Origin: Pseudocercospora fijiensis CIRAD86
Taxonomy: Eukaryota; Ascomycota; Dothideomycetes; Mycosphaerellales; Mycosphaerellaceae
Assembly (NCBI RefSeq): GCF_000340215.1
Contig: NW_006921540.1
Span: forward strand, 1,296,377-1,360,376
Direction of reading: 5' to 3'
Length of the DNA: 64,000 nt
Positions within the stretch are counted from its first letter, which is position 1, and every line of letters starts with the position of its first letter. Position numbers and translations under genes: made by a program. Positions 22,240-24,960 of the stretch are shown here, one piece after another. A model generated the notes under the pieces. That model was not told the origin of the DNA. It saw only the letters and a list, made by a program, of their open reading frames with translations, and searched no databases.

Positions 22240-22890
22240 ATGTCTCCTTACGATTATATACTTATTAATTTTCTAGGTCCTACCGATATACCCTTATCGC
22301 CTAAACGCGTAGATAAATATCTTTAGAGGCTAAAGAGTAAGGGTAAAGCAAGCTAAGTATAGGGAGACCGTAGCGAGAACGAGATATCGGAAGAGTAAGA
22401 CTCTCTATAGTATATACGAAGGAAGGAGGTTCCTCGGAAAATAGTACCGAAAAATAAGAAGGCTTTAGGTAGATAGGAGAAGGCTAAAAAGAGTAGGCGG
22501 AAGAAGACTATCGCGAAGAAAAGTTATCTTTCTATTAAAAAAAAGAGAATAAGGTAGGACTCGACGATAAAGAAGCGGCGCTTTAAACTAGGTACTATTA
22601 CCCTTCGCTAGATCCGGCTTTTCTAAAACAAAAGAGGGACCGAGCTTTTAATCCCTAAGACTCCCTTCTAGCGACTCGTCCGAGAAATTATATTAGATTT
22701 TCGGTCTAGTATACGATTTACGGCTAAGGCGATTAGTACTCTTTAGGAAGCTACGGAGGCATTTCTCGTAACCGAGCTTAAGCTTTTAAACCTCCTTACT
22801 ATCTATACGAAGCGGGTTATTCTTTAAAATAAAGATATATAGCTTCTAGCTAAAATTCGGCGTCGGTTTATAGCGGATTAGTTAGAAATT
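22240..22890 (+). pseudogene. Histone H3-fold protein 1 (diverged, long N-terminal tail)
   Basis: From the ATG at 22240 a single frame runs through a basic tail of about 115 residues (MSPYDYILINFLGPTDIPLS at the start, repeated KK/RR later). The H3 fold follows, from KLGTITLR (about 22590) through GTELLIP, RLVREI, DFRSSIRF and EATEAFLV to YTKRVIL and NKDI. Every in-frame stop in the fold except the first lies where H3 has Gln. H3 normally reads GTVAL, TELLI, RLVREIAQDF, LQEAxEAYLV, HAKRV and KDIQL. Against H3 there are two extra residues before the TELLI helix and no CENP-A-type loop-1 insertion. The N tail is unrelated to the canonical H3 tail. The frame may continue beyond the fold (see 22937-23570). 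Identification as H3 fold is strong; whether it is a CENP-A-type or other variant is open. Confidence 0.85.
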
Positions 22891-22936
22891 GTATTTAGTC
22901 GTTAGATTAACCTAGGAGGAGGCCTATTTTCGTATC

Positions 22937-23570
22937 CTTTTACCGGCTATAGGTGCCGGCTATATTTCTAATTTTATCTCCGCGCCGTCCCTAAATCTAA
23001 GGTACGAAGTAGAAACCTAGCGCTCTATATTTACCCGGCTATTATAGAGACGAGCTACATTTAGATTAGTTTCTTCGTATATCGCGACCTAGTAGGTAGT
23101 AAGCGAAAGGGCGATAGAACGTTTATAATACGTCTCTATTCAGACCTAAAATATAAAGGTCCTAAGGAGCCCTAGTATCCTAACTATAAGGAGATTCTTT
23201 AGCATTAGTACTTTGATCCTCTATACTACGAGGCAGATAGCAAGCCTGCGAAAGGGCGATAGAACGTTTATAATACGTCTCTATTTAGACCTAAAACATA
23301 AAGGTCCTAAGGAGCCCTAGTATCCTAACTATAAGGAGATTCTTTAGTATTAGCACTTTAATCCTCTATACTACGAGGCAGATAGCAAGCCTACGAAAGA
23401 GAAACTTTAACGAGAAATTCTCTATAATACGTAGCGCTATTATATAGCTATAGATACGTACTAAGTCCGGCAACTCGAAGAAGAATTAAGATAGCGTATT
23501 AGCGACCGAGGAGGAGATCGATAGTATACTAGTAGAGTCGAGGTCTTATAAGCGAAGCATAAGATAATAT
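22937..23570 (+). pseudogene. Frame of unknown function after H3-like 1
   Basis: After a possible GCCGGC-containing intron (about 22937-23004) the frame gives ISFFVYRDLVGSKRKGDRTF, IIRLYSDLKYKGPKEP and FDPLYYEADSKP, then is disrupted by a 145-bp tandem duplication. It may be a C-terminal extension of the upstream H3-like protein or a separate gene. I recognise no domain. Confidence 0.4.
23103..23392. repeat. 145-bp tandem duplication
   Basis: Copies start GCGAAAGGGCGATAGAACG at 23103 and 23248 and differ at a few C/T or G/A sites. 145 is not a multiple of three, so the duplication shifts the reading frame. Confidence 0.92.
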
Positions 23571-24305
23571 AGGCTCTTAGTCGTATAGAGTAACGTACTA
23601 TATAAATAACTAGGCGTACTACTCTTATTTACTTACGACCTATATCCTAGGATACTCTTCTCGTACTTTTTATACTCTTTTCTAATACCTTACCTATAAG
23701 CGCTCCGCGACAACCGAGTAAATATAAGCTATAGGGTTTCCGCTCGGTACCTTAGTCTCCGAGATAGGGCGGAGTTGAATTTAGAGCGATAGCCGGCACT
23801 CGTAGCCGGCATATAGAGACGGTAGTAGGCCTTTTCCTGCTAAATAACTAGCTTATTTAGTATAGCCTACCTGATATTTCTTATATTTACTAGCAATAGG
23901 CCTAGGTTACTTATAAGATTACTATAGCTAGTAAAGGTATTACTAAAGAATATCTATACTATAGTAGGATACTATTATTACGCCGGCTATTTATTAAAAG
24001 GAGGCTTTCGCCTATTACTATGCCGGCTATATATACCGGCTATATTTCAAAGTCTGCCGTACCTGCCTTTTTTAGCCGTACCTGCCTTCTTTCCTTACTC
24101 TAACGTTACTATAATATAGGCTTACGCGAAGCTTACTCTATTGCCTAGCGATACCGCGATACTACCTCTCTCGCTATATTCAACCTTTATATCGATACCT
24201 ATATCTCTACGCTCTATATCTACTACCTCCGTAATATCCTCGCTCCGCGCGCGCCTTCGTATATCTTCGTAACGCACTTTTTTCCTTAATTCGACGACTT
24301 TTATA

Positions 24306-24960
24306 ATAGCGAGTCTACTTAACTAAGTTACGACGCCTAGCAAGAAGGGACCTACTACTTCTACGGGTTGTAATAAGACCGGAAATAATAGAACGAGTAT
24401 AGTATATTAACGTAAGAGGGCTGCTACTACTACCGCTAGCTCCGGTACTAGAAAGGGCGTCGCGAGTAAGGCTCCGCGTAAGATAACGGCGGGCAAGGCT
24501 CTACGTAAGACGACAACTAGCGCTTCTACTACTAGTAGCAATCGTACGAAGCGTCGATAGCGCCTAGGAAGTAAGTCCTATTTATAGCCGGCAGCGTAGC
24601 CGGCAGCGTAGCCGGTAGCGTAGCCGGCATTCGTACTGTCTTTTTACTAATCCTTCTTTAGCCGTAGCCCTCTATAAGATTCGGAAGTATTAGAAGAGTT
24701 CTAAGCTCCTAATCCGTAAAGCTCCTTTCCGACGACTTATTCGCGAAATTGCCTAGGATTATAGAACGGACCTTCGCTTCTAAGCCTCCGCGATAGGCGC
24801 CCTTTAAGAGGCTATAGAAGCCTACCTAGTTCGTATCTTCGAATATATATTTCTCTTCTACCTCTTTTCGGACTATACTAATACTATTTTAGCGGTTAAC
24901 CTTATAGCTATCTACGCGAAGCGTATAACGATTATAGACAAGGATTTTAAAGCACTCGAT
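24306..24960 (+). pseudogene. Histone H3 (transposon-borne), three exons, RIP-killed
   Basis: Exon 1 (start unclear, 24306-24330) encodes a basic tail with SKAPRKITAGKALRKTTTSA. After intron 24571-24661 the frame joins exactly as LGTVALYKIRKY, where H3 has PGTVALREIRRY. It continues KSSKLLIRKAPF, RRLIREIA, DYRTDLRF, ASAIGAL and EAIEAYLV, with TAG/TAA at each conserved Gln. A second intron (about 24845-24892) interrupts after Phe-Glu; exon 3 gives VNLIAIYAKRITIIDKD. Lys56 of H3 is kept (KYQKSS), Lys79 is Arg, Cys110 is Ile, and His113 is Tyr (a CAC to TAC change). The C-terminal helix diverges. Spacing and sequence make this H3 rather than a generic histone fold. The tail differs from canonical H3, so it is not a simple copy of a host gene. 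Confidence 0.9.
24571..24661 (+). other. Intron 1 of the transposon-borne H3 gene
   Basis: Donor GTAAGT, branch-like TACTAAT and acceptor CTTTAG. It is filled with four GCCGGCAGCGTA-type units like those in the transposase introns. Splicing rebuilds the Gly-Thr-Val-Ala-Leu block of H3. Confidence 0.85.

What the first reader, a model, noticed from the sequence alone, without database searches (positions are those of the whole stretch)
22240..24960. Two histone H3-fold genes carried inside a hAT transposon
Seen directly: two plus-strand frames inside element 16578-26272 align by eye with the H3 core (GTVAL, LLIRK, RLIREIA, TDLRF, AIGAL, EAYLV, AKRITI; and GTITL, TELLI, RLVREI, EAFLV, TKRVIL). 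With one exception in gene 1 (Glu in R-E-I), in-frame stops in the cores fall where H3 has Gln. The genes differ strongly from each other: one has a long novel basic tail and two extra residues before the TELLI helix; the other has a short H3-like tail with Lys79 to Arg and Cys110 to Ile. Transposons carrying their own histones are not something I know as described. An element-supplied H3 could mark its chromatin, help it evade silencing, or bias insertion; this is speculation.
Basis: partly seen in the sequence, partly recalled or inferred. Interest (0 to 1): 0.95.

Follow-up and report, generated by a model that had tools for sequence, protein, structure and literature searches.

The report
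RIP-dead hAT transposon carrying H3 genes
A jumping gene in a fungus, almost surely a banana pathogen, carries two variant histone H3 genes, broken by the fungus's own mutation defence; this was published in 2019, but one of the two genes shows introns and signs of past selection that the published account did not report.

Summary
A 9,695-bp element (16578-26272) with identical 20-bp terminal inverted repeats carries, downstream of a hAT-like transposase, two plus-strand histone H3 genes broken by CpA-type (RIP) stops (Pfam Histone E 5.9e-18 and 1.3e-19). It is not new: Dhillon et al. 2019 (PMC6710886) describe this element in Pseudocercospora fijiensis, with two H3-like copies per full-length element, 784 in all, dead by RIP; Manning et al. 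2013 describe another H3-carrying hAT. That the window is P. fijiensis is my inference. Three points go beyond the published account. (1) The "16-aa insertion" of the second copy reads as a 48-nt intron, and a 91-nt intron lies one codon from the host H3 intron 2, against capture of a spliced transcript for this gene. (2) Transversions between element subfamilies, which RIP cannot make, spare the residues of the gene-2 core (10 changed, 18.7-20.0 expected; 0 of 3,000), so it was under selection inside the transposon. (3) A weak hAT dimerization domain is present. Neither gene is CENP-A. Any function is inferred; the 148 scored matches other than host H3 and CENP-A carry stops.

The parts
16578..26272 (.). 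whole hAT-type element, 9,695 bp, inserted in a TTC microsatellite
   Evidence: 20-bp identical inverted ends; matching blocks at 78-98% identity in the 20 fetched copies
16578..16597 (+). left terminal inverted repeat, 20 bp
26253..26272 (-). right terminal inverted repeat, 20 bp
19602..20160 (+). transposase, RNase-H-like catalytic stretch (RIP-broken)
   Evidence: read by eye; Pfam gave only sub-threshold matches, TNP-like_RNaseH_N E 0.16 and an unrelated one, SelB-wing_3 E 0.017
21401..21868 (+). transposase C-terminus with weak hAT dimerization domain (match at about 21488-21604)
   Evidence: PF05699 E 0.014, 15.6 bits, below the 21.4-bit cut-off; 22.9 bits, over the cut-off, at the corresponding place of sister copy L023
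22240..22878 (+). H3 gene 1: single exon, long basic tail, H3 core from 22591, two extra residues in the first part of the core
24405..24570 (+). H3 gene 2, tail exon (start codon not located; may begin further upstream)
24571..24661 (+). H3 gene 2, intron 1, 91 nt, GTAAGT...CTAAT...TTTAG
   Evidence: donor identical in 20 of 20 rows (window plus 19 copies; L026 too short); acceptor AG in 20 of 20
24662..24844 (+). H3 gene 2, middle exon (most of the H3 core)
   Evidence: Pfam Histone E 1.9e-17 for 24664-24843 alone
24845..24892 (+). H3 gene 2, intron 2, 48 nt; the published '16-aa insertion'
   Evidence: first two bases GT in 7 of 20 rows, a RIP-type change in 13 of 20; CTAAT branch and TTTTAG acceptor in 20 of 20
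24893..24978 (+). H3 gene 2, last exon (end approximate)
   Evidence: too short for a Pfam match on its own

Best explanation
This is a RIP-killed copy of the histone-H3-carrying hAT transposon already described in Pseudocercospora fijiensis. Shown here: it holds a hAT-like transposase and two separate H3-type genes, one intronless with a long basic tail, one with two spliceosomal introns; both genes occur in three subfamilies. Inferred: before RIP broke them the two genes were expressed as element-encoded H3 variants, and at least gene 2 was kept by selection on its protein while the element was mobile. Most likely work (inference, not shown): the variants entered nucleosomes at or near element copies and, lacking the usual H3 tail around Lys9 and Lys27, made element chromatin harder to silence or easier for the transposase to reach. 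RIP then put stops into the copies.
For: Identity with the published element: length, 20-bp inverted repeats, two H3-like copies, CpA RIP, intact original H3 on contig/scaffold 6. H3 nature. Introns: two frames that join only by leaving out 91 nt and 48 nt with canonical sites; donor 1 identical in 20 of 20 rows; host H3 intron 2 lies one codon away, same phase. Frame: 7 of 7 gap runs in the gene-2 tail are multiples of three, 2 of 10 in intron 1. Selection: in the gene-2 core the 27-29 transversions from L028 (A) to L009, L011 and L013 (three of the five B copies) change 10 residues against 18.7-20.0 expected, 0 of 3,000; from L009 to the window, L028 and L020, 8 against 18.5-19.1, 0 of 3,000. 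Each gene is one clade across the three subfamilies (99/97 and 99/95).
Against: The wrong-frame controls are not flat: +1 frame 14-15 residues against 17.8-18.8 (140-211 of 3,000), +2 frame 18-19 against 19.4-20.6 (710-1,001 of 3,000). Gene 1 shows only a weak deficit (5 against 8.1, 119 and 123 of 3,000; 8 against 10.8, 242 of 3,000; from L009 7 against 8.1, not significant; none from L015) and the tails no clear one. Gene-2 exons are not slower than flanking non-coding DNA at codon positions 1+2 (13 of 177 against 51 of 748). The introns are more conserved than the exons (1 of 138 against 30 of 267 purine/pyrimidine sites, A against B), which protein-level selection does not explain. Gene 1 has single-base gaps at three places in 6 of 21 rows, and one gap in the last gene-2 exon is 14 nt. 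The 148 scored matches other than host H3 and CENP-A all carry stops. No expression data were seen. The chromatin role rests on no test.
Confidence: 0.7

Rival explanations
1. The published reading: a spliced host H3 transcript was caught by a hAT element, amplified as a passenger with no use to the element, and quickly killed by RIP.
For: Dhillon et al. 2019; gene 1 has no intron at the host intron-2 position; tails show no clear constraint; stops in the 148 scored matches other than host H3 and CENP-A.
Against: Gene 2 has two introns, one almost at the host position; its core evolved under constraint after the subfamilies split; both genes have stems of 0.5-0.6 changes per residue, with many purine/pyrimidine differences from host H3, more than quick death by RIP alone would leave.
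Confidence: 0.22
2. Capture of a genomic, intron-bearing H3 gene (gene 2) and, separately or later, an intronless retrocopy (gene 1), without element-level function; the selection signal reflects exchange with another functional H3 source.
For: The exons of gene 2 are more diverged between subfamilies than its introns, as would follow from exon exchange; g1 and g2 join only weakly in the tree (68/55).
Against: No such source was seen: the only two matches without stops among the 150 scored (of 772 candidates) are host H3 and a CENP-A-like gene.
Confidence: 0.06
3. The genes are centromeric H3 (CENP-A) variants that would draw the element to centromeres.
For: Long tail of gene 1; one of its database matches is annotated cse4 (P0013).
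Against: Loop 1 has the ordinary H3 length in both genes, not the longer CENP-A loop; the four CENP-A rows form their own group (90/86). The host has its own CENP-A-like gene on C5.
Confidence: 0.01
4. Chance resemblance in a RIP-mutated, AT-biased repeat.
For: None found.
Against: E-values of 1e-17 to 1e-24 and the same frames in the 20 fetched copies, save six gene-1 rows with a single-base gap and L026 with only part of gene 2.
Confidence: 0.01

Closest known systems
Histone-H3-carrying hAT of Pseudocercospora fijiensis (Dhillon et al. 2019, PMC6710886; parts 1-5 of 7 read)
   Same: Length class 9.5-9.9 kb, 20-bp inverted repeats, 8-bp target duplication, two H3-like copies per full-length element, CpA RIP, one intact original H3 on scaffold 6. 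Almost certainly the same element.
   Different: They report capture of an intronless transcript, a 16-aa insertion in the second copy and no identifiable dimerization domain; here the insertion reads as a 48-nt intron, a further 91-nt intron is present, a weak dimerization domain is found, and gene 2 shows selection inside the element.
Pyrenophora tritici-repentis hAT with H3L (Manning et al. 2013, PMC3538342; 12 passages read)
   Same: hAT-type element with an extra H3-like gene between its inverted repeats.
   Different: 5.6-kb and 2.3-kb forms, one H3L each, 26 copies, mostly intact and with ESTs; Dhillon et al. report no sequence similarity between the two elements. I had no H3L sequence to compare.
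Long-tailed 'histone H3' of Drepanopeziza brunnea (P0002, 383 aa)
   Same: Long novel tail before an H3 core; best database match of gene 1 (52% over 44% of the query, E 1.2e-20).
   Different: No stops; whether it lies in a transposon could not be checked; not grouped with gene 1 in the tree, where its place is open.
Host histone H3 (G000:C6, locus L001)
   Same: Same fold family; an intron one codon from gene-2 intron 1, same phase.
   Different: Canonical tail and core; counting only purine/pyrimidine changes the element cores (subfamily A) differ from it at 10-25% of sites by codon position (gene 1: 19, 14, 22; gene 2: 16, 9, 22; of 88-89 each).

Membership tests
hAT DNA transposon | short terminal inverted repeats | tested here: met
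   20 bp identical at both ends
hAT DNA transposon | 8-bp target site duplication | tested here: inconclusive
   window copy lies in a TTC repeat; exact 8-bp duplications in 2 of 20 fetched copies, both ends not found by the pattern in 18
hAT DNA transposon | C-terminal dimerization domain (PF05699) | tested here: inconclusive
   E 0.014, 15.6 bits against a cut-off of 21.4 in the window; 22.9 bits in sister copy L023's place; not found when the long frames were scanned
Histone H3 | histone-fold sequence profile, nearest solved chains H3 | tested here: met
   Pfam Histone and PDB sequence matches, the 60 shown for each gene being H3 or H3-like
Histone H3 | ordinary loop-1 length | tested here: met
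   alignment: 9 rows of each gene, all three subfamilies
Histone H3 | conserved tail with ARTKQTARKS and ARKS motifs (recalled, and as in host H3) | tested here: not met
   tails of both genes differ (host H3); gene 2 keeps a KAPRK-like stretch
CENP-A | longer loop 1 | tested here: not met
CENP-A | groups with CENP-A in a tree | tested here: not met
   four CENP-A rows group apart from both genes (backbone weak)
P. fijiensis H3-hAT of Dhillon et al. 2019 | element length, 20-bp inverted repeats, two H3-like copies, RIP | tested here: met
P. fijiensis H3-hAT of Dhillon et al. 2019 | nucleotide identity to their consensus | not testable with these tools

The most novel reading that the evidence does not exclude
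Fungal hAT elements encode their own histone H3 variants as working parts rather than passengers: two different variants, one spliced, were kept by selection while the element spread, and their altered tails (no standard Lys9 or Lys27 context) worked against heterochromatin or RIP. The unrelated H3-carrying hAT of Pyrenophora would then be a parallel case of transposons using variant histones against silencing.
Probability: 0.3. Interest if true: 0.8.

Novelty: already known. Interest (0 to 1): 0.42.

Why it matters
The element itself is in print, so the finding is not a discovery. The re-reading matters because it changes what the published case says: a spliced, selected histone gene living in a transposon is not a passively copied transcript. 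If it holds in the five other species reported to carry such copies, transposons that bring their own H3 become a testable system for how mobile DNA deals with heterochromatin and RIP.

Tried and rejected
Chance match and CENP-A identity were tested and rejected. A profile-score test of selection gave strong results, but it is biased because it measures from one subfamily towards another; I do not use it and replaced it with the two-direction residue test. A plain codon-position test agrees in direction for most pairs but is mostly weak (lowest p 0.02, gene-2 core, A against B); comparison with flanking DNA supports gene 1 (5 of 196 against 51 of 748, p 0.013) but not gene 2. His113 to Tyr, seen in both genes (numbering recalled), is a change RIP can make, so I do not count it as a variant residue. 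Frame scans for further Pfam domains found nothing at E 0.1 (six frames of 17000-21901, ten frames elsewhere in the element). The third protein search used a badly chosen stretch of L009, found nothing and was wasted. Gene-1 matches other than P0002 are scattered H3 and CENP-A proteins, most without a named organism; gene 2 had one match, P0026, a 135-residue ordinary-looking H3. No structure was predicted. Paper searches gave two papers on H3 in hAT elements; of other listed papers I looked at passages in three (only citations of Manning et al. or unrelated text) and left the rest unopened.

Full report
What is there. The window is contig 9, bases 1296377-1360376, of a 73.9-Mb genome in 30 contigs. 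From about 8 to 58 kb it is depleted of CA and TG and rich in TA, the mark of RIP at CpA. Inside lies a 9,695-bp element, 16578-26272, whose two ends are identical inverted repeats over 20 bp. It sits in a TTC microsatellite, so its own target duplication cannot be read; 2 of the 20 fetched copies have exact 8-bp duplications, and in the other 18 the search pattern did not find both ends.

The two histone genes. Gene 1 (22240-22878, +) is one exon with a long basic tail and an H3 core from 22591. With stops read as X it matches Pfam Histone at 5.9e-18 and H3.3 in the PDB at 3e-23. Gene 2 has its core in the frame of 24664: Pfam Histone 1.3e-19, H3.3 3.9e-24. A first query one base off found nothing. 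Both cores have the ordinary H3 loop 1, not the longer loop of CENP-A; gene 1 has two extra residues early in the core. The host has its own intact H3 on C6 and a CENP-A-like gene on C5. Of 150 scored histone matches in the genome (772 candidates), these two have no stops and the other 148 do.

It is published. Dhillon et al. 2019 (PMC6710886; parts 1-5 of 7 read) describe in Pseudocercospora fijiensis a hAT element of 9.5-9.9 kb with 20-bp inverted repeats and 8-bp duplications, two H3-like copies in each full-length element, 784 H3-like copies in all, dead by CpA RIP, the intact original on scaffold 6, and similar copies in five other species. Manning et al. 2013 (PMC3538342; 12 passages read) describe a hAT with an expressed H3L in Pyrenophora tritici-repentis, with no sequence similarity to this one according to Dhillon et al. 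That the window is P. fijiensis is my inference from genome size, copy number, contig 6 and element anatomy. Five paper searches gave these two papers on H3 in hAT elements; passages of three other listed papers held only citations or unrelated text, and the remaining listed papers were not opened.

What the published account does not report: introns. The tail and the core of gene 2 are in different frames. They join across a 91-nt stretch (24571-24661) beginning GTAAGT and ending CTAATCCTTCTTTAG in the window. The donor is identical in 20 of 20 rows (window plus 19 copies) and the acceptor AG is in 20 of 20; one row departs from the branch motif and one from TTTAG; gap runs in this intron are multiples of three in 2 of 10 cases. 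The spliced reading gives ...RLG|TVAL.... Host H3 intron 2 lies one codon upstream, same phase (host exon ends read by eye, in accord with the three exons stated by Dhillon et al.). The second interruption, 24845-24892, is 48 nt, i.e. the 16 residues that Dhillon et al. call an insertion in the second copy. Its first two bases are GT in 7 of 20 rows and show a RIP-type change in 13 of 20, the window included; CTAAT and TTTTAG are in 20 of 20. Gene 2 therefore does not look like a captured spliced transcript. Gene 1 does lack an intron at the host position.

What the published account does not report: selection. The 21 rows (window and 20 copies) fall into three subfamilies: A (window and 13 others), M (L015, L016) and B (L009-L013); against the window A is 95-96% identical, M 89-91%, B 69-79% (L026, an A row, was left out). 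Copies were chosen through histone matches, so they say nothing about elements without histones. RIP makes transitions only, so I used transversions. In the gene-2 core 27-29 transversions separate L028 (A) from L009, L011 and L013 (B); they change 10 residues, where random placement changes 18.7-20.0 (0 of 3,000 as low), and from L009 to the window, L028 and L020 8 against 18.5-19.1 (0 of 3,000). The same bases read in the wrong frames give 14-15 against 17.8-18.8 (+1; 140-211 of 3,000) and 18-19 against 19.4-20.6 (+2; 710-1,001 of 3,000), so the +1 control has a small deficit of its own. With M: L028 to L015 7 against 11.4 (37 of 3,000), L028 to L016 13 against 16.0 (311), L015 to L028 8 against 11.4 (143), L009 to L015 11 against 20.2 (2), L015 to L009 13 against 21.1 (1). 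Gene 1 is weak: from L019, 5 against 8.1 for L009 and L011 (119 and 123 of 3,000), 8 against 10.8 for L013 (242), 3 against 4.4 for L015 and L016 (543, 557); from L009 or L015 nothing significant. The tails show no clear deficit (all). In the gene-2 tail 7 of 7 gap runs are multiples of three; in gene 1, 4 of 7, the other three being single bases found in 6 of 21 rows; the last gene-2 exon has one 14-nt gap.

What does not fit. The two introns differ between A and B at 1 of 138 purine/pyrimidine sites, the gene-2 core exons at 30 of 267. Introns more conserved than exons are not expected from protein-level selection alone; constraint on the intron DNA, or exchange of exons, may be at work. Gene-2 codon positions 1+2 are not slower than flanking DNA (13 of 177 against 51 of 748).

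Tree. With 9 of 21 rows of each gene, host H3, host CENP-A and 15 of the 25 proteins returned (P0024 dropped as odd, nine not put in), each gene forms one clade (99/97 and 99/95), with stems of 0.59 and 0.51 changes per residue; whether the two genes are sisters is open (68/55). The best database match of gene 1 is a 383-residue long-tailed H3 of Drepanopeziza brunnea; it does not group with gene 1, and its place is open.

Transposase. A weak hAT dimerization domain (E 0.014, below the cut-off) lies at about 21488-21604, and the same family passes its cut-off at the corresponding place of sister copy L023. Dhillon et al. could not identify this domain. The catalytic stretch at 19602-20160 is read by eye only.

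Verdict. The new content is a correction: gene 2 is an intron-bearing gene whose core was kept by selection while it lived in the transposon. That makes an element-encoded H3 variant with a use to the element more likely than the published passenger reading, but the use itself is untested.

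Noticed in passing
window 24571-24661 and 24845-24892, against exons 24662-24844 and 24893-24978: The gene-2 introns are almost unchanged between subfamilies A and B (1 of 138 purine/pyrimidine sites) while the exons differ at 30 of 267. Unexplained.
   Followed up: partly
window 17506-17566, 19493-19540, 21924-21957, 24585-24629, 26056-26088: Short arrays of a 12-13-bp unit, CCGGC-type in four of the five, recur through the element, one inside gene-2 intron 1 with copy number varying between element copies; possibly transposase binding sites.
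   Followed up: no
window 24430-24560 and the same place in L010, L012, L018, L019, L021, L022, L024, L025, L028: The gene-2 tail holds a varying number of in-frame KAPRK-type repeats (27-nt and related units).
   Followed up: partly
window 16711-17001 and 23103-23399: Two tandem duplications with units of 143 and 145 bp inside the element.
   Followed up: no
window 58000-64000: Composition changes: CpG almost absent at 60-62 kb (0.10 of expected) and TG much rarer than CA (0.16 against 0.57), unlike the pattern before.
   Followed up: no
window 5000-8000: A stretch of about 50% G+C with little or no RIP mark and open frames of 136 and 247 residues on the minus strand; perhaps ordinary genes.
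   Followed up: no
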